A stretch of 64,000 bases of DNA from Bradyrhizobium sp. CB1717 (GTDB lineage: Bacteria; Pseudomonadota; Alphaproteobacteria; Rhizobiales; Xanthobacteraceae), in NCBI RefSeq assembly GCF_029714325.1, contig NZ_CP121666.1:5146001-5210000 (forward strand), written 5' to 3'. The position numbers and the translations under genes were made by a program. Of the stretch, positions 34,793-49,156 are shown one piece after another; position 1 is the stretch's first letter; the number at the start of each line of letters is the position of its first letter. The notes beneath the pieces are model-generated. The model saw nothing but the letters and a program-made list of their open reading frames with translations. It did no database searches and was not told where the DNA came from.

Positions 34793-34869
34793 GGTCCCGT
34801 AGCTCAACTGGATAGAGTAGCGGATTTCTACTCCGCGGGTTGCAGGTTCGAGTCCTGCCGGGATCGCCA
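34793..34869 (+). tRNA. tRNA-Arg (UCU anticodon), integration target
   Basis: 77 nt including an encoded CCA. Acceptor stem GGTCCCG pairs with CGGGATC (one G-T); anticodon stem GCGGA/TCCGC encloses loop TTTCTAC, giving anticodon TCT; T-arm GCAGG-TTCGAGT-CCTGC is canonical. Its last bases form the left half of the element's attachment repeat, so the gene stays intact after integration. Confidence 0.96.
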
Positions 34870-34870
34870 G
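34852..34870 (+). repeat. attL, 19-bp direct repeat in tRNA-Arg 3' end
   Basis: GTCCTGCCGGGATCGCCAG, identical to 46888-46906. It covers the 3' T-arm strand and acceptor end of the tRNA, the usual crossover region for tyrosine integrases. Confidence 0.92.
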
Positions 34871-34914
34871 CCTCCAAACCGGAGCTTGATTTCATTCACT
34901 TATTCGACCGAATT

Positions 34915-34942
34915 GGCTAACCGGGCTGGCAGGTTAGCCACT
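34915..34942. promoter_or_regulatory. left arm-type site / hairpin beside attL
   Basis: GGCTAACC and GGTTAGCC form an 8-bp inverted repeat with a 9-bp spacer. The right half extends to AGGTTAGCCACT (34931-34942), which recurs exactly at 46847-46858 beside attR. Likely integrase or excisionase arm sites; the dyad lies at the 3' end of the integrase gene and might also act in termination. Confidence 0.5.
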
Positions 34943-35977
34943 CGTTGTTCGCATTTTGGCCCCTGCACTCTCGGCCAAAAGCATCCGGTTCGCCTCATCG
35001 ACGTAGCGCTGAGCCTCGCCGATTGTCTTCCAGCCGTGCCACGCCATCAGTTCAAAGGCGCTCGCGCCGTTCAGTGCGTGGCGAACTGCGGAAGCTTTCC
35101 GCAGGCCGTGGGCGGCACAGTGATCGAGCTGGGCTTGATCGCACCACTCGCGAAATTTGTTGCCGAACCCCGCCGCCGTAAACGGCTTGCCATGCTCCGT
35201 GAGCAGATAGGCGAGACCGACCTTCGGGTGCAGCTCAATTTCAGCGACGAGGTCGGGCAACAGCGGGATGTCAAATTGCACGTCAGTCTTCTGCCGACGC
35301 ATTGACAGCTTACCGTTCCTGACGTGCTGGCGGCCCATCCTAACCACGTCGGCGCGCGCATGGCCGGTTTGCAGCAACAATTCAAGGGCAAGACGCGCCT
35401 TTGTTCCCGGTGCATGGCGCGTCCGATATTGCGCGATCTCTTCCTCGGTCCAAGTGTGGTGGCCTTTGGTCTTCATCTTCGAAAGCTTCGTGCCTTCAAG
35501 TGCATCAACCTTCATCAGATTGTGAGAGATGCAATAGTCGATGAACCCGCGCATAGCCTTTTTGAAATTGCGCTGAGCGGCAGGACGTTTCTTGTTGATG
35601 ATGTTCTGGAGCGCCTTAGCGTGCATCAGTGAGACGCGTTTGTCGCCGTGATCAGCACGGAATGCTTCCAGAATTGCCCGGCGGTTCTGCTGAGTGACTT
35701 TCGCAAGAGCCTCACTGAATGCGGCGGATTGATAGTAGCTGATCAGAGCAGCACTAATGGTGCCGTGCACGGTACGTTTGGAGCCGAGTTCGATACCCTC
35801 TCCGCGCTTTAACGCGCGCTCATAAACCTCCATGAATTGCGGCGACCATGGTAATCCCGGCAAGGCCACAGATTTCCACCCCGCCTTGCGGAAGTAAAAC
35901 CGAGGCGCGCCGTGACGATCCACGTAGCCATGAACATAACGGGGCAATTTGCGAGGCTTCATTGGACCGTGTCCCAT
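34934..35977 (-). CDS. tyrosine recombinase (site-specific integrase)
   Basis: Catalyses integration and excision at tRNA-Arg. 347 residues. An N-terminal arm-binding region (RKLPRYVHGYVDRHGAPRFYFR, typical of alphaproteobacterial island integrases), a core-binding helical domain, and a catalytic domain with all residues present: R208 (GHARADV), K230, H290-x-x-R293 (HGLRK), H314 (AWHGW) and Y325 (RYVDEAN). ATG 35977 has GAGGAG 8 bp upstream; ATG 35962 would overlap the preceding gene's stop and is an alternative. The 3' end abuts attL, as expected for an active element. Confidence 0.95.
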   Translation of the reverse strand: MGHGPMKPRKLPRYVHGYVDRHGAPRFYFRKAGWKSVALPGLPWSPQFMEVYERALKRGEGIELGSKRTVHGTISAALISYYQSAAFSEALAKVTQQNRRAILEAFRADHGDKRVSLMHAKALQNIINKKRPAAQRNFKKAMRGFIDYCISHNLMKVDALEGTKLSKMKTKGHHTWTEEEIAQYRTRHAPGTKARLALELLLQTGHARADVVRMGRQHVRNGKLSMRRQKTDVQFDIPLLPDLVAEIELHPKVGLAYLLTEHGKPFTAAGFGNKFREWCDQAQLDHCAAHGLRKASAVRHALNGASAFELMAWHGWKTIGEAQRYVDEANRMLLAESAGAKMRTTSG

Positions 35978-36279
35978 TCGTTGGTCTCCTCGGAGACGTT
36001 CGGGCTGCCGAACAGTAACGTTACACTGCCGTCCGCGTCGAGCGTCGCGCCGCTCACTTCAATTCCCGCCTCACCTGCCTGCCGCATCGCGCGCGCCAAC
36101 GTCATACGACGCTTGCGAGTGCGTTTCAGCTTCGGCGGGTGGGTCTCGATATCCCACGGCTCGTGATCGGGAAGATCATGAAACCGGACAATTCCGACCC
36201 AAGGATTGTTCCAATTCATGAAGCGCACGCCATCTAAATAGTTGTATCTGCGGCCTCGCCGACCTTGACCCCAAAGCAT
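35959..36279 (-). CDS. hypothetical protein upstream of and overlapping the integrase
   Basis: 106 residues with a basic, aromatic N-terminus (MLWGQGRRGRRYNYLDGVRF), a WNNPWVGIVRFHDLPDHEPWD segment and a Lys/Arg-rich middle (KLKRTRKRRMTLARAMRQAG). Not recognised. It overlaps the integrase start, so the two are probably cotranscribed, and its size and charge would suit an excisionase or DNA-binding accessory, though no HTH is evident. The start may be the internal ATG giving MNWNNPW. Confidence 0.55.
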   Translation of the reverse strand: MLWGQGRRGRRYNYLDGVRFMNWNNPWVGIVRFHDLPDHEPWDIETHPPKLKRTRKRRMTLARAMRQAGEAGIEVSGATLDADGSVTLLFGSPNVSEETNEWDTVQ

Positions 36280-36358
36280 TACCGGGCACAGCGGGGAGGT
36301 ATTGGCTTGTCGCTATTGGGCTGGCCGCATCGCCCTCAAATGATCGCTGTGTCCGTCC

Positions 36359-36577
36359 TCAATAACCTTTCGATGACCGCACGACGGCGACAGTCGGTGC
36401 CGCCGTGCCCATGATCTGCGAAATCTCTTCGCGCAGAGACGAGATCGCCGCGCGCATTTCCTCGCCGCTGACGTATGTTGTCGCCCGACCGTCGAACTCG
36501 ACGGTACGCACGCCGGAGCGATACGCCCGTTTGAGTGTATCGAGCTGCGCCCGCAATGTCGCGAAATCAGCCATCAT
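36359..36577 (-). CDS. gpW-like phage head-tail connector protein
   Basis: 72 residues: MMADFATLRAQLDTLKRAYR, SGVRTVEFDGRATTYVSGEE, then a helix and a short tail ending SSKGY. The pattern (helix, beta-hairpin V-EFDGR-xx-Y, helix) is that of lambda gpW, which plugs the portal after packaging and joins head to tail. Its ATG overlaps the capsid stop (TGATG). Being the last head gene, it ends the module where tail genes would start in a full phage; none follow. Confidence 0.7.
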   Translation of the reverse strand: MMADFATLRAQLDTLKRAYRSGVRTVEFDGRATTYVSGEEMRAAISSLREEISQIMGTAAPTVAVVRSSKGY

Positions 36578-38346
36578 CAGGCGCCCGCGTTGGTGACCAG
36601 ACCACGGTGCTCGATGATGCCGCAGCCAAAGTCCAAGCGAACCTTGGTCTCGACGCCATCCACATCGAAGCCGACGCGGGTTTCGATCTGCGGACCGGGC
36701 GCGCCAGCCAGATAAGCGTACTCGATGCACGGCAGCAGCGCCGGATCGGCGGCGAGATACCAGCGCGTAGCACTCGTCAGGCGCGGCTCGACAATCGGCG
36801 TCAGCTTCGTGAACGGGTTCACATCGTCGAACGTGATCGGGTTAGTCGTAACGGCCAACTGGTCGGCAACCGTCTCAAGAGCGCTCGGCACAAGCAGGAA
36901 GGCAGGTACGGCCGAGATGATGCCGCCGCCGGGGCCGGTCTGCGAACGCATCAGCAGCCGCGCGGCCGACAGCGAGGTCACGTTGGGAGCAGCCGCGACG
37001 CTGGCGACGTTGCCGTGTGCCGCATTGAACAGAGCGACGTTGTCCGACATGGTCGGACCGTTGCCGGAGTTCGCCTGCAACAGGTTGGCGAGCTTTTCAT
37101 TCTCGAATTCCGCTGCCGCAAGACCGAGACGGCGGGTCACGTCGCCGAGACCGCCGAGATCGTCATTGATCAGCGCCTGACGGCTGATCGCGAAAACCTT
37201 GCCATAGGTCGAGACGGCATAGCTTTCGGCAGTGTCAACAAAGTAACCGCGCTGGAATTCGCCGCCTTCGAGAACCGGCGCCAGCGTGAAGCCGGAATGG
37301 TCGATCTGAATGCGAGACTTCGCCCGGAAATCAGGCGCCGTCGTCTCACGGGCAATGCGGCGAATGCCGCTCGGGGCGACCGCGTAGGCATCCCGGAGCG
37401 ACTTGTTCATCAGGTTCGCCAGCAAGGCCGGATAATCCGAGGTCGTCTGCAACGCGCGGGTAATCAGCGAAGGGGCAGTCATGCCCATGGTCGAGATGCC
37501 AGCGCGATGCAGGCATTCGCGCGCGATATCGGCACAGGACATGCCGACGTACGGCCGCGCCTGCGGCGCCGGAGTGAAATTCGGCGCGATCCGCGCGTAC
37601 ATGGCTTCAGCGGCGGCGCGCTGGAAGATTTCCGGGTTATCGAGTGTATTGGCGTTGTGCATGTTCATGGTTCCAACGCTGCGAACCGTCACAGAACGGT
37701 CGAGCATGTCATTGAGAAAAGCGCGGCGTGCATCGTCGATGCTCGCGCCGCATTCGATCAGAGCATTGACCCGGTCCGTCGCGATACCAGCGCGGCGGCC
37801 AAGCTCCACAATGGCGCGGTCATCGTTGGCGGCACGGGTGCGAGCAGTAGGATCGGCCGGCACGGCGACGAAGCTCGCTTCCCGGACGGACCACCGGACC
37901 GCCGTCATGGTGCGCTGGCCGCTGGCGTCCTTGCCGGCACGCCACTCATCGACCTGATAGCCGACCGAGAGATTGCGCAGGATGCCGTTGCGCACGTCCG
38001 TCACCACGGGCGCGACTTCCGGACGCGACGAGAAGCGAAGGCGCGCAATCACCTCGCTGCCTTCGATCCAGACGTCGTCAATCGTGCCGAGCACGTTGTC
38101 GATGCCGCCCTGCTGGTGGCTATCGAGAACCGACGCACCACGGGTGACCCCGAGGTCGAGGCCCGACGGATCGAGAATTTCCATGAAGTCGCCACGCGCA
38201 TCACGGCGCCGAACCGGCGTGGTCGATGCGATGACGGCGTCGATGGTCAACGCCTCGGGGTCAAAAGTGCGCGGACGCGGGATCGCGTCGCGGCGGGTAA
38301 GGTCAACTGCGCTCTCGCGCAGCAGAAGGGCAGTCGAGTTACGCAT
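36577..38346 (-). CDS. prohead protease-major capsid fusion protein
   Basis: 589 residues from ATG 38346. The N-terminal 160 or so residues are a U35-type prohead protease: RGDFMEILDPSGLDL, the catalytic His in VLDSHQQGG (H77), IARLRFSSRPEV and the Ser in NLSVGYQV (S127). A linker (about 165-230) leads to a Mu-type/HK97-fold major head protein (AEAMYARIAPNFTP, DYPALLANLMNKSL, YGKVFAISRQALINDDLGGLGD, IVEPRLTSATRWYLAADP). Fusions of protease and capsid occur in some alphaproteobacterial phages; self-cleavage during assembly is expected. Starts overlapping the portal stop by 8 bp. No frameshift or truncation is seen. Confidence 0.9.
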   Translation of the reverse strand: MRNSTALLLRESAVDLTRRDAIPRPRTFDPEALTIDAVIASTTPVRRRDARGDFMEILDPSGLDLGVTRGASVLDSHQQGGIDNVLGTIDDVWIEGSEVIARLRFSSRPEVAPVVTDVRNGILRNLSVGYQVDEWRAGKDASGQRTMTAVRWSVREASFVAVPADPTARTRAANDDRAIVELGRRAGIATDRVNALIECGASIDDARRAFLNDMLDRSVTVRSVGTMNMHNANTLDNPEIFQRAAAEAMYARIAPNFTPAPQARPYVGMSCADIARECLHRAGISTMGMTAPSLITRALQTTSDYPALLANLMNKSLRDAYAVAPSGIRRIARETTAPDFRAKSRIQIDHSGFTLAPVLEGGEFQRGYFVDTAESYAVSTYGKVFAISRQALINDDLGGLGDVTRRLGLAAAEFENEKLANLLQANSGNGPTMSDNVALFNAAHGNVASVAAAPNVTSLSAARLLMRSQTGPGGGIISAVPAFLLVPSALETVADQLAVTTNPITFDDVNPFTKLTPIVEPRLTSATRWYLAADPALLPCIEYAYLAGAPGPQIETRVGFDVDGVETKVRLDFGCGIIEHRGLVTNAGA

Positions 38347-39754
38347 TCTGCGTCTCCGTGTCAGGTTGATTAGCGATGTTGGTGGCATCCGAAGACAGAT
38401 CGTCATCGGCGTAGGGATCGGCCGCGATCTCGGCATCGACATCGGCGATGTCGCGGCCCTGCTCGGCGATGATGTCGGCGCGAGAGCGCAGCTTTGCCGC
38501 GACGGCCAGCGTGTTGGCCTTGGCGGCCTTCAATTCGTCGATGGCAGGCCAGCCGGGGAACAAGAACGACGCGGCATAGCGTTCGGGATTGCTCTCATAG
38601 TCCGGCGCGCGCATGCGGCCGGACAACACTTCCAACAACACGATGCGATCCCAGATCGGGATCAGCAATTGCGCGACCAGATGATTTTGTTGAATGGCCT
38701 TGATACGACGCTGGAACGACGCCAGCGCGAGCTTGCCGGCCGAGTAGTTCACGCTGCCGTAATCGCCCGTCGCAAAGAAGGCGGGGACGCCAGCGCCGCT
38801 ACAGATCATGCGCTCGATATGGGTCAACACCTCGCTGAGCGACGCCATGTCCGAGGTCGGTGAAAACTGGACGTCCGCGCCTTCCGGCAAGCGCATGATC
38901 GCGCCGGGCTCCAGCATCGGAAGCAGCGGGTGATCTTTCAGCATGTAGCCTTCGGGATCGCGGATGAACGCGGTCAGCACGGCAGTCGTCTTCAGCTTCA
39001 CGATCGACGCATCGAGAGCGTCGTCGAGTTCGCGCGCGAGGCCAGCCACGGCCGTCAGCGGGCTGATACCGCGCGGGACGCCCGGCCACTGCGGTTCAAA
39101 AACGTGACAAATGTCCTGCGTCAGCACGCGGACCGGAGGCGCCACGGACGCCCACGGGCTGTCGGGCGGCGTCGGGAGAACCCAGTAAGCCGCGCGACGG
39201 CCGGCGTCGTCGAATTCCACGCCCGCAACAATGTTGGGCGTGTCGCCCGTCATGCCGAACGACGGGAGCGTTTTCGCGCTGTCCACCTGATCAGCCGACA
39301 AGAGCTGCAACTTCAAACGCATGGCGTCGGGATCGACGATCAGCTTCGTAAAGCTCTCACCATCGACAAAGAAGGCGCGCGCCTTGCGAGACAGGTAGCC
39401 ACCGAGAGACATCCCGCCTTCGACTGAGCAATCGGCGAAAAATTTGTTCCAAGCCGCATGGAGCTGCGCCGCGATCTCGGGATCGGGATGCACCGAGCGA
39501 ACGGACGGGCCATCACCGACGATGGCTGTCACCGCGTGCTGGATGATGCTCGCGATCAGGGCATTGTTCTGAGACTGATGGCCGATCTTGCGGGCGGCAA
39601 CGCGGCTCGCCGCGAGCTGCTGCGAGATCGGCGCGGATAGCGCATAGCTGTGCGGCCAGCGACCGCTGCCGCTGGCCGCGTCATAGCCGGACGCGCTGCG
39701 GATGAGGGCGCGGAAGGCCTTGCGGGCGCGGGTGATGATGCTCGCTTTTCGCAT
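38339..39754 (-). CDS. phage portal protein, lambda family
   Basis: 471 residues; dodecameric ring at the head vertex through which DNA is packaged. Family features: RWPHSYALSAPISQQLAASRVAARK at the N-terminus, VDGESFTKLIVDP, a mid-region with CHVFEPQWPGVPRGISPLT, and the C-terminal VPAFFATGDYGSVNYSAGKLALASFQRRIKA. ATG 39754 overlaps the upstream TGA (TGATG); GTG 39757 immediately before is an alternative. Full length and intact. Confidence 0.92.
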   Translation of the reverse strand: MRKASIITRARKAFRALIRSASGYDAASGSGRWPHSYALSAPISQQLAASRVAARKIGHQSQNNALIASIIQHAVTAIVGDGPSVRSVHPDPEIAAQLHAAWNKFFADCSVEGGMSLGGYLSRKARAFFVDGESFTKLIVDPDAMRLKLQLLSADQVDSAKTLPSFGMTGDTPNIVAGVEFDDAGRRAAYWVLPTPPDSPWASVAPPVRVLTQDICHVFEPQWPGVPRGISPLTAVAGLARELDDALDASIVKLKTTAVLTAFIRDPEGYMLKDHPLLPMLEPGAIMRLPEGADVQFSPTSDMASLSEVLTHIERMICSGAGVPAFFATGDYGSVNYSAGKLALASFQRRIKAIQQNHLVAQLLIPIWDRIVLLEVLSGRMRAPDYESNPERYAASFLFPGWPAIDELKAAKANTLAVAAKLRSRADIIAEQGRDIADVDAEIAADPYADDDLSSDATNIANQPDTETQNA

Positions 39755-40230
39755 CACTCGATTTCCACGTTAAAGAAGTCGAGCACATGCTGGTTGATCG
39801 CCTTCAAATCGAACACGATCATGATGCCGTTGCTGTCAGCAATCTGAGCAGCCAGCTTGTTGGGATTGCTAAGCGCGAACGTGAATTGCTCAACCTCTGA
39901 CGTAGTTTTGCCCCGCTTGACGACGAGAAGCGCCGGGATGTTCTCCATCTTCTCCAAGTGAGAGCGAAGCAAGACGCCCACCCCCATCATCGGATGATGG
40001 GCAATCTCAATTGCAATGGGGGCGGTGACGCCACAGTCAGTCAAAAGCTTCACGCCGCGCACGACGCAGGCGTCCAAAATGGAAAACTTCTTGACCTTCA
40101 TGTCGCCGGACACAGTACCGCCGAGGAAGTTGTAGCGATTGCGCCACTGGCGCAGCGCGGCTTCCGAGCAGCCAGCAGCGGCCGTCACTTCGGCCGATGT
40201 GAAGCGCTTGTCGTGCATTTTGATTTTCAT
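39754..40230 (-). CDS. MerR-like helix-turn-helix protein, candidate repressor or small terminase
   Basis: 158 residues with an N-terminal winged-HTH signature (FTSAEVTAAAGCSEAALRQWRNRY, then KKFSILDACVVRGVKLL) as in MerR-type regulators. The C-terminal half is not recognised. It is first in the head-gene operon, directly before the portal, which is where a small terminase normally sits, and it borders a dyad-rich divergent control region, which suits a regulator. Both roles are possible from the sequence; I favour regulator. Confidence 0.7.
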   Translation of the reverse strand: MKIKMHDKRFTSAEVTAAAGCSEAALRQWRNRYNFLGGTVSGDMKVKKFSILDACVVRGVKLLTDCGVTAPIAIEIAHHPMMGVGVLLRSHLEKMENIPALLVVKRGKTTSEVEQFTFALSNPNKLAAQIADSNGIMIVFDLKAINQHVLDFFNVEIE

Positions 40231-40257
40231 GGCCTGCCTAGAATTTAATACGTTTAG

Positions 40258-40301
40258 TTGACACGTAACCGGATATTCGAATACGTGTCAAGTACACGTA
40301 A
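40258..40301. promoter_or_regulatory. divergent operator/promoter with 10-bp inverted repeat
   Basis: TTGACACGTA (40258-40267) and TACGTGTCAA (40282-40291) are a perfect inverted repeat with a 14-bp spacer; ACACGTAA recurs at 40294-40301. Each arm contains TTGACA, a -35 consensus pointing toward the HTH gene on one strand and the replication genes on the other. Likely the genetic switch of the element, bound by the adjacent HTH protein; -10 boxes are not clear. Confidence 0.55.
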
Positions 40302-40359
40302 ACGAGCGCCCGCTCGGTTGGCAGACCGAACGGGCGGGAGCGATTGAAGGGAAATCAAA

Positions 40360-40785
40360 GTGGAAACAACAGCTTATGTCCGTAGCGCGACCCTGTCCAC
40401 CACCGGGCCGGTGAAAATCGGCGACTACTGGGCTTGTTCGGCTGGGTTTTCGACCGAGGACTTCGGCGACCCCATCCCCGACGACGTCCAGCGCAGCCAA
40501 GTGGAGATCGTCAAATCGATCTTTGCTCGTTGCCGCCCGATCCGCACTGTGCCGCCCGACCAGCGCCTGACTATTTGCTGGCTCAAGCATGATATCGAGC
40601 GCTTGGGCCGCCGTGGCTATATCTCGCGCGGCGCGGTTCTGGTCGCGGCGTCCGAGATGGGCTTCAACATCGTTCCCATCTTCGATGAGTATGGTCTGGT
40701 TGACAAAGGCCACGCGCCGATCAGCGCGTACATCGGCATCAACTATCGCGACGTGGAGCGCTTGCTGCGCGAGGTCCGCAAATGA
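40360..40785 (+). CDS. hypothetical protein, first gene of the element's replication operon
   Basis: 141 residues from a GTG start with GAAGG 10 bp upstream. Composition is ordinary and soluble; features include RLTICWLKHDIERLGRRGYISRGAVLVAASEMGFN, which could be a winged-helix-like DNA-binding unit, but I do not recognise the family. The stop overlaps the ATG of the AAA ATPase (ATGA), so the two proteins are translationally coupled and probably act together in replication. Confidence 0.65.
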   Translation: METTAYVRSATLSTTGPVKIGDYWACSAGFSTEDFGDPIPDDVQRSQVEIVKSIFARCRPIRTVPPDQRLTICWLKHDIERLGRRGYISRGAVLVAASEMGFNIVPIFDEYGLVDKGHAPISAYIGINYRDVERLLREVRK

Positions 40786-42164
40786 GCGAGATCGTCACCG
40801 CAGACAAGAAGTTTCTAGCTCAACTCAATCGTCGGATGACAATGATCATCCGGGGAAACGAAATGGCACGTGTGATCGAAGAGCTTATTCAAGAGCATGA
40901 AACTGATGACGACATTCTGAAGTTCTGCATGTCGTTTCGCCGCAACACGCCAGCCGAAATCCGCAAGATGATCGCCGACGCGCGCATCACGCTTGAGATT
41001 TCGGAGGTGATGTCGCGCGGCCAGATGCGTGCGACGCCGTACAAGTGGACGCAACCGGAGCACATTCCGATGCGCGAATTTCTCTATGGCAAGCACCTCA
41101 TCCGCGAATATGTCAGCGCGACGGTTGCGCCGGGCGGGCTCGGCAAATCATCGCTCATCATCACTGACGCGCTCGCGATGGTCTCAGGTCAGGCGTTGCT
41201 CGGCACTACTTCCGAACAGCTCCGGGTCTGGTATTTCAACCTCGAAGACCCCGCCATGGAGACGACGCGTCGCATTCAAGCCACCGCCAAGCACTTCGAA
41301 TTGACGGAAAATGATATCGGCGACCGGCTGTTCGTTAATCATGGCCGTGACCGGCCTCTTGTGATCGCCAAGACGGAAGGCCGCGACACCGTGATCTGCA
41401 CGCCCGTCGTTGACGCCCTGATCGCCGAGATCAAGGAACGCGGCATCGACGTTGTGATCGTCGATCCGTTCATCTCGTCTCACAAGGTCCCGGAAAATGA
41501 CAACAACGCCATCGATCTGGTCGTGAAGGAATGGGGCAAGGTCGCCGATCGAGCCAATTGTGCCGTTGAGCTTGTCCACCATGTTCGGAAGGGCGAGCAA
41601 GAGGTCACGGTGCAGAGCGCGCGGGGCGGCGTCGCGCTGACGGACGGTTGCCGCTCGGTCCGCGTGCTCAACCGGATGACCGAGGCCGAGGCGAAAAACG
41701 CGGGCGTCGATCATCATCGATCCTACTTCTCGTCCTATGCCGACAAGGCCAACCTGACCAAGCCGGCCGACAAGCGGGACTGGTTCAAGCTGGTTTCGAC
41801 CGATGTGGACAACAACCCTCTGAGCCGGCTCGGCGGTAACTCGTTCGGCGATCTCAAGGGCGATGACATCGGCGTGGCGACCCGCTGGGAGTGGCCTGAC
41901 TTGCTGGCCGGCGTCACGGCGTCGGACTTCGAGCGGTGCGCTCAGGCGATCAGAGCAAGCCAATGGCGGGCCAATCAACGGGCGAATAGCTGGGTCGGCA
42001 TTTCGATTGCGAAGACGTTGGGCCTCAGCCTTGCCGACAAGAAAGACCGGGCCAAGGTTGTCGCGCTGATCAAGACTTGGCGGGAGACTGGCGCTTTGAT
42101 CGAGGTCGAGAAGCAGGCCGAGAACCGGCAGATGAAGAAGTTCATCGAGGTGGCCGACGATTGA
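40782..42164 (+). CDS. RepA/AAA_25-type ATPase (RecA-fold replicative helicase-like)
   Basis: 460 residues. An N-terminal 95-residue region is followed by a RecA-type core with Walker A APGGLGKSS (K122), VWYFNLEDPAMETTRRI, Walker B IDVVIVDPF (D228), and the downstream sensor-like VELVHHVRKGE and SARGGVALTDGCRSVRVL. This is the pattern of hexameric RSF1010 RepA-like helicases and prophage or satellite replication ATPases. The C-terminal 110 residues look like a winged-helix domain. Followed at once by a cluster of short repeats, a plausible origin. Confidence 0.82.
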   Translation: MSEIVTADKKFLAQLNRRMTMIIRGNEMARVIEELIQEHETDDDILKFCMSFRRNTPAEIRKMIADARITLEISEVMSRGQMRATPYKWTQPEHIPMREFLYGKHLIREYVSATVAPGGLGKSSLIITDALAMVSGQALLGTTSEQLRVWYFNLEDPAMETTRRIQATAKHFELTENDIGDRLFVNHGRDRPLVIAKTEGRDTVICTPVVDALIAEIKERGIDVVIVDPFISSHKVPENDNNAIDLVVKEWGKVADRANCAVELVHHVRKGEQEVTVQSARGGVALTDGCRSVRVLNRMTEAEAKNAGVDHHRSYFSSYADKANLTKPADKRDWFKLVSTDVDNNPLSRLGGNSFGDLKGDDIGVATRWEWPDLLAGVTASDFERCAQAIRASQWRANQRANSWVGISIAKTLGLSLADKKDRAKVVALIKTWRETGALIEVEKQAENRQMKKFIEVADD

Positions 42165-42174
42165 CTAGGCTGGC

Positions 42175-42306
42175 TGCTCCAGTTGCTCCAGTTGACTGGA
42201 GCAGCAGTGGAGCAACTGGAACACCTGACCTGCTCTGCTCCAGTTATATCCCTTTAGGGATAACTGGAGCTGGAGCAGCAGATCGGGGGTCGGAATGACT
42301 GGAGCA
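42175..42306. repeat. iteron-like repeat cluster with hairpin, candidate replication origin
   Basis: Nine-mer ACTGGAGCA/TGCTCCAGT occurs at about eight places in both orientations, exact or with one mismatch (42175, 42184, 42195, 42206, 42215, 42236, 42263, 42298). In the middle, 42238-42252 and 42257-42269 form a 13-bp stem with a two-base bulge and TTTA loop. It starts 11 bp after the helicase stop. Position and iteron structure suggest an origin or an autoregulatory RNA structure; no T-run follows, so it is not a standard terminator. Confidence 0.65.
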
Positions 42307-42432
42307 GATTGGGGGCGTCGGGATGAAGGTCAGCATTAGACGCGTGCTCGCGCCACATCAGCCTGCGGCTTGCACGTACCAGCGGCTTTGATACGCTTGC
42401 CCCTCTATTTTAGCTATTTTGGAAACCTGACC

Positions 42433-42837
42433 ATGGCTTTGACCATCATCTGCGTGACCGGACCGGGCTCTACCGGCAAGAGCGGCACCATTCGCGAGTT
42501 CACCTCGAAGCACCTCAAATACGTAAAAGCCAAGGGCGACATCCTCGGTGTTTTTCCGATGCCGGGACCGCGCTATGCAGTCGGTGTGAGCGGGACTGGG
42601 GACCAACTCGATTTCATCATCCAGCACCGGAAGTTCCTGACCCGGTACTTTGGCCTTAAGGCCATGATTGTCGCCAGTCGATCTGAGGGAAAGACCATTC
42701 AGGAAGTCGAGCGCTTTGCAAACAAGGCAAAGGCCGTCCTCCATCTCATTCGCACCAAAAAGCTCGCTAGCCCACGTGAACAGAATGCCGCCATCAAGGC
42801 GAACGTCGCGAAGATCAGACGACTTCTGCCTCGCTAG
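42433..42837 (+). CDS. small P-loop NTPase-like protein of unknown function
   Basis: 134 residues from ATG 42433. It opens MALTIICVTGPGSTGKSGTI with a clean Walker A (GPGSTGKS, 10-17) on the first strand, but the protein is short for a full P-loop domain: about four strand/helix units can be guessed (DILGVFPMP, LKAMIVASRS) and there is no obvious Walker B acidic pair. Basic C-terminus (KIRRLLPR). Possible kinase-like or DNA-packaging-like accessory. Family not recognised. Confidence 0.65.
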   Translation: MALTIICVTGPGSTGKSGTIREFTSKHLKYVKAKGDILGVFPMPGPRYAVGVSGTGDQLDFIIQHRKFLTRYFGLKAMIVASRSEGKTIQEVERFANKAKAVLHLIRTKKLASPREQNAAIKANVAKIRRLLPR

Positions 42838-42872
42838 TACACCGCAAGCGTGAACTCATTCGGGGGCCGTGT

Positions 42873-43289
42873 ATGCTTAGGAAGTTGTGGGTGGAGTATC
42901 AATATCGGACGCGAGACGTGCTCCGATTTGAGTACCGCGTCCTGCTTGTTATTCTGCTGTTATCTGCGTTCGTTTGTTTGGCGATCGGATTTGGTCTTGC
43001 ATTGCCAGATATTCGCGGAAAATGGGTCAACAGCGCGGGGCTTTTGTTTGACGTTAGCGGCGTCGTGCAGCTTCATATCAGCGGCCTGTTCGACGAAATC
43101 CTTAGCCGGTACGGTGACGACGAAAAGTACCCCTTCGGTCCGCCATCCCACATTACGCGGCGGATAATCGACAATCCGGACACTCCGATCCGGATGTGGA
43201 TACGAACCCAACTCTTCTTCGAGGGGAGGACGGGCTTTTACTTGCTGCTGGCAGGGTTCTTATTTCAGTTGATCGGGACGTGGGTGTGA
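42873..43289 (+). CDS. two-helix membrane protein, unknown
   Basis: 138 residues. A basic N-terminus (MLRKLWVEYQYRTRD) precedes a membrane helix (LLVILLLSAFVCLAIGFGLAL), a central polar part of about 75 residues and a C-terminal hydrophobic helix (FYLLLAGFLFQLIGTWV). 35 bp after the P-loop gene, same strand. Two-helix membrane proteins carried by satellites and prophages are often exclusion or abortive-infection effectors; that is context only. Confidence 0.6.
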   Translation: MLRKLWVEYQYRTRDVLRFEYRVLLVILLLSAFVCLAIGFGLALPDIRGKWVNSAGLLFDVSGVVQLHISGLFDEILSRYGDDEKYPFGPPSHITRRIIDNPDTPIRMWIRTQLFFEGRTGFYLLLAGFLFQLIGTWV

Positions 43290-43478
43290 TCATCGTGGGT
43301 CCTGTAGGGGGGAGCAATGCGGGGTCGCCTTGCGCGCTGGGTATCAGCACGTCCGATAACGGCTTAGACCCGCAGCAACATAATTATCGCATTGCCTGAA
43401 TTTTTGTAATTTTATACCAACTCCTAGGGGGAAGCTGGGTCTGTTCACAGCGGGGGCGCAGGCGCGATCCGCACTGGC
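43290..43478. other. intergenic, nothing recognised
   Basis: About 190 bp between convergent genes on the element, AT-richer than the host. No ORF or strong hairpin seen. Confidence 0.3.
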
Positions 43479-43685
43479 CTAGTTGGCAGGACCCGAGCCG
43501 CGATGCGTCCCTCTCGCCTCGATAGACATGAATACGGCGCGTACGATCCAAGATGCGACTAGCACTCCAATCGCGATAGCCACAGCAAAGTACCAAGGCT
43601 GGTAGAAAAAAGGTACGGCCATCAGAACGAGCGTTGCCAGCGTCAGCAATTGGCTCTTCGCCATGTAGCTCGCAAAGTTGTGCAT
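43479..43685 (-). CDS. small two-helix membrane protein, unknown
   Basis: 68 residues, mostly hydrophobic (LLTLATLVLMAVPFFYQ then WYFAVAIAIGVLVASWIVRAVF) with a short polar tail. A strong ribosome site (GGAGGAAACGATT then ATG) supports expression. Stand-alone on the minus strand between plus-strand genes. Could be a holin-like or exclusion peptide; not assignable. Confidence 0.65.
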   Translation of the reverse strand: MHNFASYMAKSQLLTLATLVLMAVPFFYQPWYFAVAIAIGVLVASWIVRAVFMSIEARGTHRGSGPAN

Positions 43686-43787
43686 AATCGTTTCCTCCAG
43701 CCATCAACTATTAGCTTCGCTGAACGAAGTAACGCAGGCAACTGGTAGTTTGCGCGTCGGGTCACCTCTACGCTGTTAGGACACTTC

Positions 43788-45155
43788 ATGGCCTACCAAC
43801 TAATGCCCCGACTGGCCCAACTGACCAAGGTCCACGGTGTAACGTTGAACGCTAACGACCTTGTCATTCAGTGTGCCACCGACACAATCGACCATGCCGA
43901 CCTGAGAATGCCTGTCGTCGAGGCGTTGAAGGTCACGGATTGGCTTTCTCGCATACCTCATCATTCGATCTCGCCGAGCTCGAATGAACATCCAGTGGTC
44001 TACGAACCCTTGCCCCTGCTCGCTCAGTTGACCAAGGCGCATGGAATGGTGTTGGACGGAAAGCACCTCATGATCCAGTGCGCCACGAGCGTGGTGGAAT
44101 GGGCCGACTTAGTAATCCCAGTCGAAGAAGCGCTGAAACTGCGTGGGCAGCTTGCAACGTTACTGAGATTGTTCACGCCCATAAGTATGGGAAAGCCCGA
44201 CCGCTTACTCCACTTTCCTCATGGAGTAAGCGTGAGCGCGATATTGGAGATACAGAGATATAACTACCGCACCAACCGCTACATGCAAGGATTGAGCAAA
44301 GACGAGCTCGATCAACGAGTGAAGGACGTGATGGCGAATGTCATAACGCTTCGCGATGACGGCAAGTACACCTTAATACTGCCGAGACGAAATGGAATGC
44401 ACGTTGCAACGCGAAACATCGACTTTGTGCGCCTCTATGTTGAGTTGGGCGAAGAACTGCATATCAGGGGATTGCTAAATGAAAAATCTGCAACTCCGGT
44501 GGAAAAAATAAAGCGCTTGGCTGATGAAAGTTGGTGCCGTCGCCCCGACTGGGTGAATGCTTCGCAGCACTCACGTGAGAGCTATTTCAACCAACCCAAG
44601 ATGCTCTTCAAGTTTGGCAGAGCCGAACATATGCGCGCGTTATATGAACGAGGTGAACTGCTGGTCAGGCCAGCATCGTATTTCGCAAGCGCGGATGGCG
44701 CGGCGCGTCAGGATAACGAACTCATAATGAGTTGGTATCGTGACGGGCAAAAGATCGAGTTTTCTACCAGCGATTATTATTGTTGGCGCTGCGCTTCCGT
44801 CTACGATTATCGGTTATTTATGGACTTCGAGAGTGATGCTTGCCTTGCGATAAACGATCCAGACAGCTTCATTAAGAGATTTGCGAAAGGTGTGGCGGCG
44901 CAGGTGTCAGGTGCGCAGAGCGTACGTCTTGTGCCGGCGTACTATTACGATCCGCTTTCAGTCCTAGACGATCCAGCCGAATTCGCTACCGTTAAAGATT
45001 TGGCTATTCAATGCGCAAAGCACTTCCGTTTTGCGTATCAGTGGGAATTTCGGGTTGTCATCACGCGGTCTTCGCCTCCACCTTTGCAGCCGTTCAAATT
45101 CGAGATGGGTTCGCTGCAAGACATCGCAGAACTGATCGTAGCACCCGCTTCATGA
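43788..45155 (+). CDS. protein with internal N-terminal duplication and DUF2971-like C-terminus, candidate defence cargo
   Basis: 455 residues. Residues 7-53 and 76-122 are a direct repeat (PRLAQLTKVHGVTL... and PLLAQLTKAHGMVL..., both with IQCAT and EALK), period 69. The C-terminal region (about 265-455) has LFKFGRAEHMRALYERGELL, VRPASYF, a polar DNEL, and near the end YQWEFRVVI, the layout of DUF2971-type proteins (short 'FxFG...L..G.L..s...F' lead, acidic loop, late E(F/W)R). I am unsure of that call. GC is clearly lower than the host. Ribosome site TAGGA 7 bp before ATG. Confidence 0.6.
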   Translation: MAYQLMPRLAQLTKVHGVTLNANDLVIQCATDTIDHADLRMPVVEALKVTDWLSRIPHHSISPSSNEHPVVYEPLPLLAQLTKAHGMVLDGKHLMIQCATSVVEWADLVIPVEEALKLRGQLATLLRLFTPISMGKPDRLLHFPHGVSVSAILEIQRYNYRTNRYMQGLSKDELDQRVKDVMANVITLRDDGKYTLILPRRNGMHVATRNIDFVRLYVELGEELHIRGLLNEKSATPVEKIKRLADESWCRRPDWVNASQHSRESYFNQPKMLFKFGRAEHMRALYERGELLVRPASYFASADGAARQDNELIMSWYRDGQKIEFSTSDYYCWRCASVYDYRLFMDFESDACLAINDPDSFIKRFAKGVAAQVSGAQSVRLVPAYYYDPLSVLDDPAEFATVKDLAIQCAKHFRFAYQWEFRVVITRSSPPPLQPFKFEMGSLQDIAELIVAPAS

Positions 45156-45187
45156 GAATAGTCGAACAAGGTGGGGACGTGATCCGC

Positions 45188-45790
45188 TTAGTTGCGAAAG
45201 AATTGAGCCGTGATCTTAATGACGGTCATAAGTGATGGAACGGTAAGCAGACCCAGTCCGTAGAAAAAGAAAAATGCCACGGCTAGGCGACTGTATTTGG
45301 CTTCGGCGGACAGCATTGCATAGTGCAGACGCAAGGTTTGGGCTTTTTCTGCCTCCTCCCAACTCAAGCTCTGAGCACCAATCAATTCGAGGCCCATCAT
45401 CTCGCCGATTGCCTTGATATAGGAGCGGGTCATTGCTGGCCCATCAACGCGGACATAGTCCTCCCAGTCGCCATGTTTCTTTATCTGACGCGGGCAGCGA
45501 TATTGATAAAGCGCTGATCCGACCCCTAGAAACAAGAGCCCGAAATATACGAAGTACAATTTGAGCGACCACATGCGGCTCCACCAATCCGCCTCTTGAT
45601 GGTGTTGCACGCCGCCGATCAACCCGCCATCAAAAATAGACGTGAATTGTGAGCTGAGAAGAACTAGATAGCCGATGACCGGAAAGGCGACAGAAGCCTG
45701 TACGGCACGAGAGTTACCGATTGACCGCAGGCTTGCCCAAGTGGGGATAAAGCTAGTGCGGCGTTGATCCAACCCTTTTTGAGAGATCAT
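45188..45790 (-). CDS. three-helix membrane protein, unknown
   Basis: 200 residues: hydrophobic segments near residues 30-52 (ASVAFPVIGYLVLLSSQF), 78-100 (LYFVYFGLLFLGVGSALYQY) and 170-190 (LAVAFFFFYGLGLLTVPSL), with a soluble helical loop carrying AMTRSYIKAIGEMMGLELIGAQSLSWEEAEKA between the last two. 7 bp after the preceding minus-strand gene, so operonic with it and the DUF7662-like gene. Function unknown. Confidence 0.6.
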   Translation of the reverse strand: MISQKGLDQRRTSFIPTWASLRSIGNSRAVQASVAFPVIGYLVLLSSQFTSIFDGGLIGGVQHHQEADWWSRMWSLKLYFVYFGLLFLGVGSALYQYRCPRQIKKHGDWEDYVRVDGPAMTRSYIKAIGEMMGLELIGAQSLSWEEAEKAQTLRLHYAMLSAEAKYSRLAVAFFFFYGLGLLTVPSLMTVIKITAQFFRN

Positions 45791-45797
45791 TGGCTTT

Positions 45798-46505
45798 TCA
45801 GACGATGTTTTCCGATGCCGCTAAAGCAGCAAATCGTTCGAGGATTTCACGGAAGCTGCCCGCCTCTTTCTTTAAATGAGGATATACCTTGGCGGCTTCG
45901 AGATCGAATTGCTGCCAGCCAGGTACTTCAAGCAGTTTCAGTGAACGCAGCGCAGGGTCGAAGCAACTGAGAAATCGCTTTTGGATCATATTAACGCGGT
46001 TCAATCGGATGGCTTCACTGGTATCGGGGTCATTTGAAACCAGTTCGATTGCGTCCCGTAGGACAGAGAGACGGAAGTAAAATTGCGTCACTGCCAGCAG
46101 TACCTCGGCATCGAGCAATCCAACCTTTCCTGCCACGGCGGGCAACACGAGCGGAAGCGACGGAAGGAATTTGGCGTCTTCACCAACGATCTTTCTCGTT
46201 CCCCAACCTCGCCACGGTTCGATGTAGTCATTCGCGCAGCGTGCAACTCGATCGACGATTTCGGCGTAGAGACTTGCTCTCATAGCTTTGATCTCTTCCT
46301 CTTGACGCCTAGCATCGTGAACCGTCACGGCGCCGAAGCTAATAGCACTGCCCACAATCGTACTTATCAGACCAATCAAGGCCGTGCTTATCGGCCCGCC
46401 AATGCCAAGGCTTAATATCAGCGCGGTGGCAGTTACCAATCCCGCAAGACCGGCTAAAGCGATCAACAATATTAAATGTCGTCGATATGGGTTCGCAGCG
46501 GACAA
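45798..46505 (-). CDS. two-helix membrane protein with long cytosolic domain, unknown
   Basis: 235 residues from TTG 46505 (GGGGA 5 bp upstream, directly after the stop of the preceding gene); a GTG at 46580 would lengthen it but sits inside that gene. Two hydrophobic segments (HLILLIALAGLAGLVTATALIL and ISTALIGLISTIVGSAISFGAV) are followed by a helical domain of about 170 residues starting HDARRQEEEIKAMRASLYAEI. The layout, membrane anchor plus helical cytosolic part, suits a sensor or effector; family not recognised. Confidence 0.6.
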   Translation of the reverse strand: MSAANPYRRHLILLIALAGLAGLVTATALILSLGIGGPISTALIGLISTIVGSAISFGAVTVHDARRQEEEIKAMRASLYAEIVDRVARCANDYIEPWRGWGTRKIVGEDAKFLPSLPLVLPAVAGKVGLLDAEVLLAVTQFYFRLSVLRDAIELVSNDPDTSEAIRLNRVNMIQKRFLSCFDPALRSLKLLEVPGWQQFDLEAAKVYPHLKKEAGSFREILERFAALAASENIV

Positions 46506-46507
46506 TG

Positions 46508-46759
46508 TTATCCCCTGCGTCGAAAGGTTACCGTCCGCTGCAACCGATTTGGTTCGGCTCGATACCCCGGAACTGTCCACGCACGGCTGTGGCTATGATT
46601 GGTATCGTCGGGGTCTTCGTTCGCCCACCATGCATCATACTCATAGGCTGATTTCGGGAGCGAGCGGCCGATCAGCATTTCGATCTCGGCGAAGGTCATC
46701 TTGAGGGACGCGGAGGTGTTAGCCGCGAGCTTGTCCCTCAACGGGTCATAGATCGACAT
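46508..46759 (-). CDS. DUF7662-like small protein
   Basis: 83 residues: YDPLRDKLAANTSASLKMTFAEIEMLIGRSLPKSAYEYDAWWANE, then AWTVPGYRAEPNRLQRTVTFRR. This layout (S-x-YDPL-x-x-xL, a TF-x-EIE-x-xxGxxLP-x-SA motif, WWAN, and a closing W-x-xxGY-x-V-x-x-F-R) is a recognisable small family often found in mobile and defence-rich regions, with unknown biochemical role. First gene of the three-gene minus-strand cargo operon at the right end of the element. Confidence 0.7.
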   Translation of the reverse strand: MSIYDPLRDKLAANTSASLKMTFAEIEMLIGRSLPKSAYEYDAWWANEDPDDTNHSHSRAWTVPGYRAEPNRLQRTVTFRRRG

Positions 46760-46846
46760 CTCGTCCCTCCCCCCATCAGACGATCTCAGAGTAGACGGTT
46801 ATCCACTGGGCTGAAAACTTAAACTAGGCCAGTGGCACCATAAGCT

Positions 46847-46858
46847 AGGTTAGCCACT
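46847..46858. promoter_or_regulatory. right arm-type site beside attR
   Basis: AGGTTAGCCACT, identical to 34931-34942 near attL. It lies 29 bp inside attR; the left copy lies 60 bp inside attL. Matching 12-mers at both ends fit integrase arm-type binding sites. Confidence 0.5.
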
Positions 46859-46887
46859 GTATCCTATTGAATTTGCAGCCAGTATTT

Positions 46888-46906
46888 GTCCTGCCGGGAT
46901 CGCCAG
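46888..46906 (+). repeat. attR, 19-bp direct repeat
   Basis: GTCCTGCCGGGATCGCCAG, identical to the tRNA-Arg 3' end at 34852-34870, preceded by sequence that cannot complete the tRNA. Host chromosome resumes at 46907. Confidence 0.92.
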
Positions 46907-47049
46907 TGTTTTCAAAAAGATGGACGTTCTTCTCTTGCAACCCCCGCGTCAGACGGGCCACACACACTTTGCAGATACTTCTCCGCAATGAGGAGAAGGT
47001 CTTCATTCGCATCTCCAGCCTCGGCGTGCATTCGCAAGCGCCACAAAGT

Positions 47050-47385
47050 CTATTCAGACTTCTTGCCGACAACCCATCTAACGATCGGCCATCCCACGAC
47101 GAAAGCTGACGTTGCAGTGCCGACTACTCGCGTTACCAGGGCGCCGAGGTCCTCTTCGCTGAAGTACGGGTGCCTATTGTAGAAGATGAGTACAAGAATG
47201 GTGCTGAGCGCGCAGCAGAGGGCAACCAACAACCGATATAGCTGCCCTTCCAGATGCGCGACGCGCGCCTCAAGGTTTTCGTTATCCACTATCCGAGATC
47301 CCTCAAAAACTTCTTCCAAAACTACTTCTCGTTGATCCTGTCCGCTGAGCTGGAGCCCAACACCGGCGTGGCAGTCCCCCAGCAT
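47050..47385 (-). CDS. small membrane protein with coiled-coil start, uncertain
   Basis: Up to 111 residues from ATG 47385, or about 79 from GTG 47289, which has GAGGG 10 bp upstream and is the better start. NENLEARVAHLEGQLYRLLVA looks like a short coiled coil running into a hydrophobic helix (LVALCCALSTILVLIFY), and a second one follows (GTATSAFVVGWPIVRWVVG). Unknown function; first possible host gene beyond the element. Confidence 0.45.
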   Translation of the reverse strand: MLGDCHAGVGLQLSGQDQREVVLEEVFEGSRIVDNENLEARVAHLEGQLYRLLVALCCALSTILVLIFYNRHPYFSEEDLGALVTRVVGTATSAFVVGWPIVRWVVGKKSE

Positions 47386-47588
47386 CTTACCAAGGTTGAT
47401 TCGGCGATTGCCACTTTTTCCCGGATCGGCCGTTGGACGTCGTCGCCATCCTCAACGAGCTAAGCTGAGCGTCAGAACCTTTCGCTCCTTCTCATCACGA
47501 ACGCGTGGGTAACCCCGCACCGGGCCTTTGAACCGGGCGCATCGGTCCTATCTATGCGCCGGGCGACGTGCGCCCGAGAAGGACTCCG

Positions 47589-47849
47589 ATGCCACTGTCC
47601 GAGTGGACGAGAATGGCCATCGCATCTGCGGTGGCCGTGATCGCGATATCATTTTTGGCAATTGACGCTGGCGTCGACGTGAACACTGGCGCGATCGTAA
47701 AGCGCGTCGAGACGGCGCGGGCATCCATTACGGACGCGGTGGCGCGCCAGCATGAGCTGGCCTTCGCCGTTCAAGCGTGGTCGCGAGGCAATCACGACAG
47801 GCCGCTCCCGGAAAAGCAGCCCCTGGAGCAGTGCCTGGCGATCGATTGA
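47589..47849 (+). CDS. small secreted or membrane-anchored protein, unknown
   Basis: 86 residues from ATG 47589 with AAGGA 6 bp upstream. An N-terminal hydrophobic segment (MAIASAVAVIAISFLAIDAGV) could be a signal or anchor; the rest is polar (RVETARASITDAVARQHELA). Not recognised. It ends 23 bp from the convergent PLP-fold gene. Confidence 0.5.
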   Translation: MPLSEWTRMAIASAVAVIAISFLAIDAGVDVNTGAIVKRVETARASITDAVARQHELAFAVQAWSRGNHDRPLPEKQPLEQCLAID

Positions 47850-47872
47850 TCCATGCTGCGGCGGCCCGCACA

Positions 47873-49156
47873 TCATCCCCGGCCCGGTGTCTGGTGCGTC
47901 CGCCACCACCCCGCAATCGCCGCCGCCAGATCATTCCACAGCTCGGTCGGCAGATCCGGCACCGCAACCCGGACGCTGTACTCGTCCGTGGTCGCATTGT
48001 GAAACCATTCGGTCGCGGCGAAGTCGAAGCCGAAGCTTCCGGCGTGGCGGATCGGGAAGCCGTCGCGGCCGAGATCGCGGCTCATCGCGTCAGCGGCCTG
48101 CCGCGCGCCGGCTTCATCGAGGGGACGCCTGCTGCGGAGCGTGACGTAGAGGCCGTGGGTGAAGTGGAGCTCGGCCGAGAGCGAGGCCAGCTCACGTGAG
48201 AAAAGTCGGGCCGCATGGCGGCCATTGCGCAAGATGGCTGCGACGCGCCGCTTCGTTAAGGCCCAATAATCCGCCGTACCAACAAACGGAGGGAAATGTG
48301 CCGGCAGCGCCGCGCCGCCGAGAAGGCGGACGGCATCGCGCGTCTCCGCTGCGAGGCGTTCGGCCATTGCGCCATTCGTCGGCGCGCCCTCCTCGCTCCA
48401 GCGGACGAACACCGCGGAGCCGAGCCGGCCGTATTCCGCCCCGAGCGAATCCAGCTTGGTATGGCTTCGCACCATCACGACGGGAATTCCGCTTCGCCTT
48501 GCCCAGCGCAAGACACGCCGGATACGACCGGACCGGCCGGCAAAGCATGTCGTGTCGAAGATCAGGAGATCGAGACCAGAACCATCGCAGCGTAGCGCTG
48601 CTTCGAACGCGCCGGCCGAGACGCAGGAATCCAGCAGAAGGATTCGTGGCGCGCCGGCGCCAGCCAAGACATTGGACGACGGCAAGCTCAACGTGATGAG
48701 CCGCAGTTCCGGGACGAAGCGCTCGATCAGCTCCAGCGTCTCGCCGTAGGAGCCCGGCAAAACCCGGATCTCAGCCCCGGCGACGATCCGGGTGGCGGCA
48801 AACAGCAGCGCCGAGATCGCAGCCATGCCGGAGGCGGTATAGATCGTCTCGCTGCTGCATCCGGGCTCGCGATCATAGAACGAGGGACCGTTCACCTTCA
48901 GATCCGCGCGCTGATAGTCGTAGCTGAATGTGAACGGACCGCTGGTCGGAGACGCCGTGGCCGACCAGGATGTCTCCGTCGCCTTCCAGTCCTGCAACGA
49001 ATGTTCGGCGCGCAGCGCGGCGGTCAGCTGGAATTTGGTCCTGATGACCTCGTCCGCCGTGCGCGGGCACGCCAGGCGCTGCGGGTTGCTCAGGCAGCCA
49101 TTCAGCAGCCCGATCTCCCTGTGCTTGCGCTCCAGATAGGCCTCGATGGTCTCCAT
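47873..49156 (-). CDS. PLP-dependent transferase-fold protein, unassigned
   Basis: 427 residues. A Cys/Met-metabolism-like aspartate aminotransferase fold is suggested by ETIYTASGMAAISALLFAATRI (cofactor phosphate loop), GLDLLIFDTTCF (the cofactor Asp at 201), and VMVRSHTKLDSLGAEYGRLG (K234 as the Schiff-base lysine). The first 95 residues are extra and not recognised. The substrate is unknown; the short LPGSYGETLELIE stretch replaces the usual substrate tyrosine segment. Divergent from the DUF2171 gene. Confidence 0.65.
   Translation of the reverse strand: METIEAYLERKHREIGLLNGCLSNPQRLACPRTADEVIRTKFQLTAALRAEHSLQDWKATETSWSATASPTSGPFTFSYDYQRADLKVNGPSFYDREPGCSSETIYTASGMAAISALLFAATRIVAGAEIRVLPGSYGETLELIERFVPELRLITLSLPSSNVLAGAGAPRILLLDSCVSAGAFEAALRCDGSGLDLLIFDTTCFAGRSGRIRRVLRWARRSGIPVVMVRSHTKLDSLGAEYGRLGSAVFVRWSEEGAPTNGAMAERLAAETRDAVRLLGGAALPAHFPPFVGTADYWALTKRRVAAILRNGRHAARLFSRELASLSAELHFTHGLYVTLRSRRPLDEAGARQAADAMSRDLGRDGFPIRHAGSFGFDFAATEWFHNATTDEYSVRVAVPDLPTELWNDLAAAIAGWWRTHQTPGRG

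What the first reader, a model, noticed from the sequence alone, without database searches (positions are those of the whole stretch)
34852..46906. Capsid-forming phage-satellite-like element in tRNA-Arg
Seen: exact 19-bp att repeats; intact integrase; intact portal, protease/capsid fusion and gpW-like connector with overlapping starts and stops; MerR-like HTH; AAA replication ATPase; no large terminase, tail or lysis gene in 12 kb. Known: capsid-forming phage-inducible islands encode their own small heads but borrow a helper phage's terminase and tails. Inference: this is such an element in an alphaproteobacterium, with the head genes fused and reduced. A decayed prophage would be expected to show broken genes; these are intact.
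Basis: partly seen in the sequence, partly recalled or inferred. Interest (0 to 1): 0.88.

Follow-up and report, generated by a model that had tools for sequence, protein, structure and literature searches.

The report
Motorless capsid-encoding phage satellite
A 12-kilobase mobile DNA element in a soil bacterium carries genes for its own virus head but no recognisable packaging motor or tail, so it probably depends on another virus; intact relatives with the same gaps sit in other Bradyrhizobium genomes.

Summary
Observation confirmed. The element lies between exact 19-bp repeats (34852-34870, 46888-46906), the first at the 3' end of tRNA-Arg(tct). It has an integrase, an unbroken operon (MerR-like HTH, portal, protease-capsid fusion, gpW/Ad1 connector) and a divergent orf141-AAA_25 replication operon ending in iterons. 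No terminase or tail gene was found.

It is not the end of a decayed prophage. Among 265 genus genomes, 19 have the capsid gene; seven, this one included, carry the same arrangement without terminase, ~12 kb att to att in the six where repeats were found, head genes open and under purifying selection. Relatives show the empty site. Sister elements, and 9 of 10 relatives elsewhere in the order, do carry TerL, so this clade probably lost it.

Best reading: a satellite that makes its head but borrows terminase and tails. A second clade lacks portal and terminase (12 loci). Packaging, helper and transfer are inferred.

The parts
34793..34869 (+). tRNA-Arg (anticodon tct), the integration site
   Evidence: ARAGORN
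34852..34870 (.). att repeat, copy at the tRNA 3' end
34934..35977 (-). tyrosine integrase
   Evidence: PF00589 1.5e-8, phrog_1 5.4e-21
35959..36279 (-). orf106, small ORF of unknown function before the integrase; relatives in L087, L089, L093
   Evidence: no family; blastp cluster
36359..36577 (-). gpW-like / Ad1 head-tail connector
   Evidence: phrog_2545 6.1e-14
36577..38346 (-). prohead protease - major capsid protein fusion
   Evidence: PF25209, PF04586, phrog_4523; start
38339..39757 (-). lambda-type portal
   Evidence: PF05136 1e-55, phrog_21 1.1e-58
39754..40230 (-). MerR-type HTH protein, first gene of the head operon; probable regulator
   Evidence: family profile to CarH/MerR domains; not related to TerS of relatives
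40360..40785 (+). orf141, conserved partner of the replication gene, function unknown
   Evidence: alignment of 8
40782..42164 (+). AAA_25 (RepA-like) replication ATPase
   Evidence: PF13481 5.1e-36, phrog_906 2.1e-36
42165..42370 (.). iteron cluster, putative replication origin
   Evidence: 8 TGGAGC/GCTCCA vs 0.33 in shuffles, maximum 3 of 500
42370..46759 (.). cargo: orf155, orf138, orf68, orf455, orf200, orf260, DUF7662 protein
   Evidence: DUF7662 1e-19; the others without a significant family match; the same slot holds defence genes in relatives
46888..46906 (.). att repeat, distal copy

Best explanation
A phage satellite that makes its own head but has no packaging motor. Shown by sequence: an element bounded by att repeats in a tRNA gene, with integrase, a replication ATPase beside iterons, an intact head operon (portal, protease-capsid, connector) behind a MerR-type gene, variable cargo, and no recognisable terminase or tail gene; the same set recurs as ~12-kb elements elsewhere in the genus. 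Inferred: when a helper phage enters or is induced, the integrase excises the element, the replication ATPase copies it, the head operon is switched on, and satellite procapsids with the satellite portal are docked by the helper's GpA-type terminase, filled with satellite DNA from an unidentified packaging site, and joined to helper tails through the gpW-like connector.
For: Seven elements of this arrangement without TerL among 19 capsid-positive genomes of 265, head genes full length and under purifying selection; att spans 11.8-12.5 kb in six of seven; empty site in relatives; iterons; defence-type cargo in the same slot in L087 and L091; TerL present in sisters L093 and L094 and in 9 of 10 order-level relatives, so its absence is derived and shared; lambda-type portal and gpW-like connector, partners of GpA-type terminases (recalled); TerL-and-portal loci of that type in host genomes G460 and G319.
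Against: No induction, particle or helper seen. No packaging site identified. Four of the seven host genomes have no GpA-type TerL at all (G000, G479, G477, G315), so the helper would have to come from outside. Two further copies are damaged: L116 has an in-frame stop in the portal, L119 an interrupted capsid gene. No integrase family matches the 416-418-aa protein at the integrase position in L087 and L089, though by eye it looks like a divergent tyrosine recombinase. Only three TerL families were searched in the host genome. No TerS was found.
Confidence: 0.62

Rival explanations
1. Interference module: the element moves by some other route or inside helper capsids, and its portal, capsid and connector are kept mainly to poison or decoy helper head assembly.
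For: No motor; defence-type cargo in relatives; satellites are known to interfere with helpers (PMC12987554 passages).
Against: Protease, shell, portal and connector are all kept together under purifying selection, and sisters keep the same head genes with a TerL; a decoy needs fewer parts.
Confidence: 0.13
2. Decaying remnant: a former cf-PICI-like island or prophage that lost its terminase and is on the way out.
For: TerL was lost relative to sisters; L084 shows a TerL remnant in another lineage; two of nine copies of the clade have a broken head gene.
Against: Seven elements diverged down to ~65% capsid identity keep full-length head genes, sit at different sites and carry different cargo.
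Confidence: 0.12
3. The motor comes from another resident element, a terminase-bearing satellite, rather than from a phage.
For: G520 holds both the motorless L088 and L129, which has TerS, TerL, portal and tape measure but no capsid match.
Against: Seen in one of seven genomes; L129 carries its own distant portal and no att repeat was found for it.
Confidence: 0.06
4. The element encodes an unrecognised packaging motor, for example the AAA_25 ATPase or a cargo protein.
For: An ATPase gene is always beside the head operon; several ORFs have no family match.
Against: The AAA_25 gene is replaced by DUF5906/VapE-type primase-helicases in L091-L093, including L093, which has TerL; orf155, which has only a chance-level AAA match, is not shared with the relatives.
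Confidence: 0.05

Closest known systems
Capsid-forming PICIs (cf-PICIs)
   Same: Integrated island with its own capsid, protease, portal and connector and no tails; size near the cf-PICI mean of 14 kb (PMC10803314 passages)
   Different: No TerL, TerS or HNH found; host lies outside the groups named as main cf-PICI hosts in that passage
Terminase-bearing islands of the same capsid family, e.g. Paracoccus plasmid island L033 and Bradyrhizobium L093
   Same: Portal, protease-capsid fusion, connector, integrase; L093 shares the tRNA-Arg site and 83% integrase identity
   Different: They encode TerL, L033 also a probable TerS; here it is absent
PICIs of the SaPI type, P4 and PLE
   Same: Integrase, own replication genes, cargo, presumed use of a helper's motor and tail (PMC10690885 passages)
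   Different: They use helper capsids; here the element has its own portal and capsid
Streptomyces satellites MulchRoom and MiniFlayer
   Same: Satellites with their own portal and capsid genes (PMC10690885 passages)
   Different: They encode both terminase subunits, parasitise virulent phages and lack key replication genes
Rhodobacter phage RcKemmy group
   Same: Protease-capsid fusion (35.8-36.7% identity in the listed hits) beside a portal and a gpW-like gene
   Different: Tailed phages with terminase, tail and lysis genes

Membership tests
cf-PICI (as described in PMC10690885, passages) | major capsid protein, prohead protease, portal | tested here: met
cf-PICI | head-tail connector | tested here: met
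   phrog_2545 6.1e-14
cf-PICI | large terminase subunit | tested here: not met
   none of three families in the host genome
cf-PICI | small terminase subunit | tested here: not met
   no family match; HTH protein unrelated to TerS of relatives; a very divergent TerS is not excluded
cf-PICI | HNH endonuclease | tested here: not met
   no HNH family among 15 ORFs
cf-PICI | no tail genes | tested here: met
Phage satellite in general | integrase, att repeats and empty site | tested here: met
Phage satellite in general | own replication module | tested here: met
   replication itself not shown
Phage satellite in general | induction and transfer by a helper phage | not testable with these tools
   needs culture
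SaPI-type PICI / P4 | no capsid gene of its own; uses helper capsids | tested here: not met
   own MCP and portal
Complete temperate prophage | terminase and tail module | tested here: not met

The most novel reading that the evidence does not exclude
Satellites of this bacterial family have split the virion into separately inherited part-sets: motor plus head (L036, L093), head without motor (the window clade), shell without portal or motor, at least some with a tape-measure gene (12 loci), and perhaps motor plus portal plus tape measure without a shell (L129, in the same genome as the motorless L088). Each would complete its particle from a helper phage or from one another.
Probability: 0.3. 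Interest if true: 0.82.

Novelty: new variant of a known kind. Interest (0 to 1): 0.64.

Why it matters
Satellites described so far either rely on phage proteins for packaging or, as cf-PICIs, make head and motor themselves (PMC12409344 passages). A stable lineage that makes the head but borrows the motor would show that shell, portal and terminase can be parted, and would demand a portal that fits foreign terminases. It also places capsid-encoding satellites in rhizobia, where cultures release many apparently tailless particles of unknown origin (PMC11599138 passages), so the idea can be tested directly.

Tried and rejected
HTH protein as a TerS: profile comparison with the relatives' TerS gave probability 0.2%, so it is called a MerR-type protein. 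Hidden TerL in the cargo: an unfiltered six-frame profile search gave only noise. Resident helper or gene-transfer-agent terminase: none of three TerL families in the host genome. Packaging site: conserved noncoding blocks lie after the connector gene and at the iterons, but nothing marks either as cos. Relatives through the HTH protein in genome contigs: none; through the MCP: one, B. cytisi; MCP alone in viral contigs: none; MCP alignment: 13 loci. Window cargo as known defence genes: four of seven ORFs scanned, no PADLOC match.

Literature: ten searches, seen as listings. No listing showed a terminase-less capsid-encoding satellite; the library holds open-licence papers only, so this is weak. 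The original cf-PICI and SatelliteFinder papers are not held. Passages only were seen of PMC10690885, PMC11389934, PMC12987554, PMC12409344, PMC11599138 and PMC10803314.

Rows dropped: ORFs of 380 aa or less were left out of the trees (so portal-less L052 is not in the MCP tree); L117 matches L088 at 100% in the genes compared and was not counted apart; L094 was not comparable in the iteron test because the stretch taken lies upstream of its repA. No orf141 match was found by tblastn in L091 and L092, although the ORFs there align at 29-31%.
Full report
OBSERVATION. The window lies in a 9.23-Mb single-contig genome. Exact 19-bp repeats stand 12,036 bp apart, at 34852-34870, overlapping the 3' end of tRNA-Arg(tct), and at 46888-46906. 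G+C is 0.51-0.63 inside and 0.60-0.71 in the flanks. On the minus strand lie MerR-type HTH, portal, protease-capsid fusion, gpW/Ad1 connector, a small ORF and integrase; on the plus strand orf141 and an AAA_25 ATPase, then cargo on both strands. Head genes overlap and none is broken.

NO MOTOR. A profile of 11 GpA-type large terminases, run without filters on six-frame translations, found only noise in the window element (E = 2) and nothing in L087-L092, but full genes in L036, L038, L093 and L094 and a remnant in L084. The host genome has no match for PF05876, PF03354, PF03237 or PhageMin_Tail, and a single lambda-type portal, this one. Other terminase families were not searched.

RELATIVES. 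The capsid protein was found in 48 of 296 genomes sampled from the family and 19 of 265 of the genus, both counts including the window's own genome. By neighbourhood the 19 are: seven with head operon but no TerL (G000, G319, G520, G479, G477, G460, G315; the window and L087-L092); two with TerL (G402 L093, G367 L094); six without portal and TerL (G335, G434, G528, G298, G475, G277); four others (G320 and G380 phage-like, G492 broken, G533 unclear). The seven share connector - capsid - portal - HTH-position gene, divergent from orf141 - replication protein - cargo; L087 has one extra small ORF between portal and HTH. An integrase is recognised at the end in five (window, L088, L090, L091, L092), reversed in L091 and L092. 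In L087 and L089 the protein there matches no Pfam or PHROGs family, though by eye it resembles a divergent tyrosine recombinase. Sites: tRNA-Arg, tRNA-Gly twice, tRNA-Glu, tRNA-Asn, and two where ARAGORN called no tRNA at the element end. att repeats were found in six of seven (not L090), spans 11.8-12.5 kb; L093 spans 11.9 and L094 12.8 kb. Only pieces of ~20 kb were scanned, so uniform size is suggestive only. TerL-bearing islands measure 10.8 (L038), 11.1 (L036), 16.9 (L033) and 17.5 kb (G203), so size does not follow TerL.

CONTROL OUTSIDE THE GENUS. At E <= 1e-110, 11 of 397 genomes of the order matched, one being the window's own. Of the ten others, nine have TerL, portal and capsid in the piece fetched; the tenth piece starts just before the portal and cannot be judged. 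The portal tree groups the seven TerL-less elements (SH-aLRT 85) beside L093 (100); the MCP tree leaves that fork open. Loss of TerL at the base of the clade is therefore likely, not proven. A separate pair, L060 and L066, also has portal without a full TerL near it.

DECAY TEST. Window proteins align over nearly full length to capsid, portal and connector genes in L087-L092. Raw pN/pS of the window against these six is 0.30-0.46 (capsid), 0.37-0.39 (portal), 0.24-0.62 (connector), and 0.16-0.46 for the replication ATPase (four comparisons). pS is 0.44-0.58 for capsid and portal, so partly saturated. Against this, two further copies are damaged: L116 (in-frame stop in the portal) and L119 (interrupted capsid gene).

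MOBILITY. The right flank (46907-48300) had some match in 42 of 60 genus genomes, own included, many of them short; 11 loci besides the own one were fetched. Nine of the 11 show the tRNA-Arg and the left flank; in five the two flank matches are 24-95 bp apart, in four 182-1242 bp. In the window 588 bp after the far repeat have no match at these loci.

REPLICATION AND CARGO. Directly after repA the window has eight TGGAGC/GCTCCA hexamers against 0.33 in shuffles (maximum 3 of 500); L087-L090 have 4-6. L091 has one and L092-L093 none; these carry DUF5906/VapE-type primase-helicases instead, and in L092 and L093 TGGTGCA/TGCACCA repeats are seen by eye at that place. The cargo slot holds a PARIS-type AriAB protein in L087 (673 bits) and a PDC-S33 candidate in L091. 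Four of the window's seven cargo ORFs were scanned with PADLOC, none matched.

HTH GENE. The family profile matches MerR-type domains. It is mosaic: 57% identical to L092 but 28-33% to L087-L090, whose capsids are closer to ours, and the proteins at that place in L091 and L093 are not recognisably related. It does not match the TerS of relatives. A regulator of the head operon is likeliest; a packaging role is open.

MECHANISM. Shown: anatomy, conservation, empty site, absence of TerL. Inferred: excision, iteron replication, satellite procapsid filled by a helper GpA-type terminase, helper tail joined at the connector. GpA-type TerL occurs elsewhere in three of the seven host genomes (G319, G520, G460) and in none of the other four. 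In G460 (L130) and G319 (L131) it stands by a portal gene and may mark prophages, not tested further; in G520 it belongs to L129.

COMPARISON. cf-PICIs are described as encoding capsid, protease, portal, connectors, both terminase subunits and HNH, borrowing tails (PMC10690885 passages); other described satellites rely on phage proteins for packaging (PMC12409344 passages). This element encodes the head but not the motor: it works like a cf-PICI in part but fails its terminase criterion.

SIDE FINDING. Twelve loci in 11 genomes (L052, L053, L055-L057, L059, L061, L095-L099) have the capsid fusion and no match to my portal or terminase profiles; the 11 in the MCP tree form one clade (SH-aLRT 100). 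att spans of 10.9-11.8 kb were found in seven. Tape-measure genes are shown by HMM in two (L053, L061) and by clustering in some others; L099 has an MmeI-like enzyme and L095 a sulfatase in that region. Satellite tape-measure genes are known in PLE and reported for some cf-PICIs (PMC12987554 passages).

Noticed in passing
L052, L053, L055, L056, L057, L059, L061, L095-L099: A clade of islands with a capsid-protease gene but no portal or terminase match; two shown by HMM to carry short tape-measure genes. Spans of 10.9-11.8 kb in the seven with att repeats.
   Followed up: partly
L129:1747-18540 (same genome as L088): Integrase, weak AlpA-like gene (0.0043, below cut-off), primase-like ORF, TerS, TerL, portal, Ad1 connector, a tail gene and tape measure, but no capsid match and no att repeat found.
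   Followed up: partly
L087:13941-16049 and L091:14731-15672: The cargo slot carries a PARIS-type AriAB protein and a RelA/SpoT-type PDC-S33 candidate; the unmatched cargo of the window (42370-46759) may be an undescribed defence system.
   Followed up: partly
window 46907-47494: 588 bp after the far att repeat have no counterpart at the empty sites of the relatives examined; perhaps a trace of an earlier insertion.
   Followed up: no
L035:1-10690: A 10.7-kb linear replicon of Rhodovastum atsumiense (RHOAph) with the capsid-protease fusion, a DUF3987 protein and ParA, but no portal or terminase match.
   Followed up: partly
L043:9110-11045: Capsid part and protease part of the fusion lie in reversed order as separate ORFs.
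   Followed up: no
L087:4419-5675 and L089:4928-6178: A 416-418-aa protein at the integrase position matches no Pfam or PHROGs family; by eye a divergent tyrosine recombinase.
   Followed up: partly
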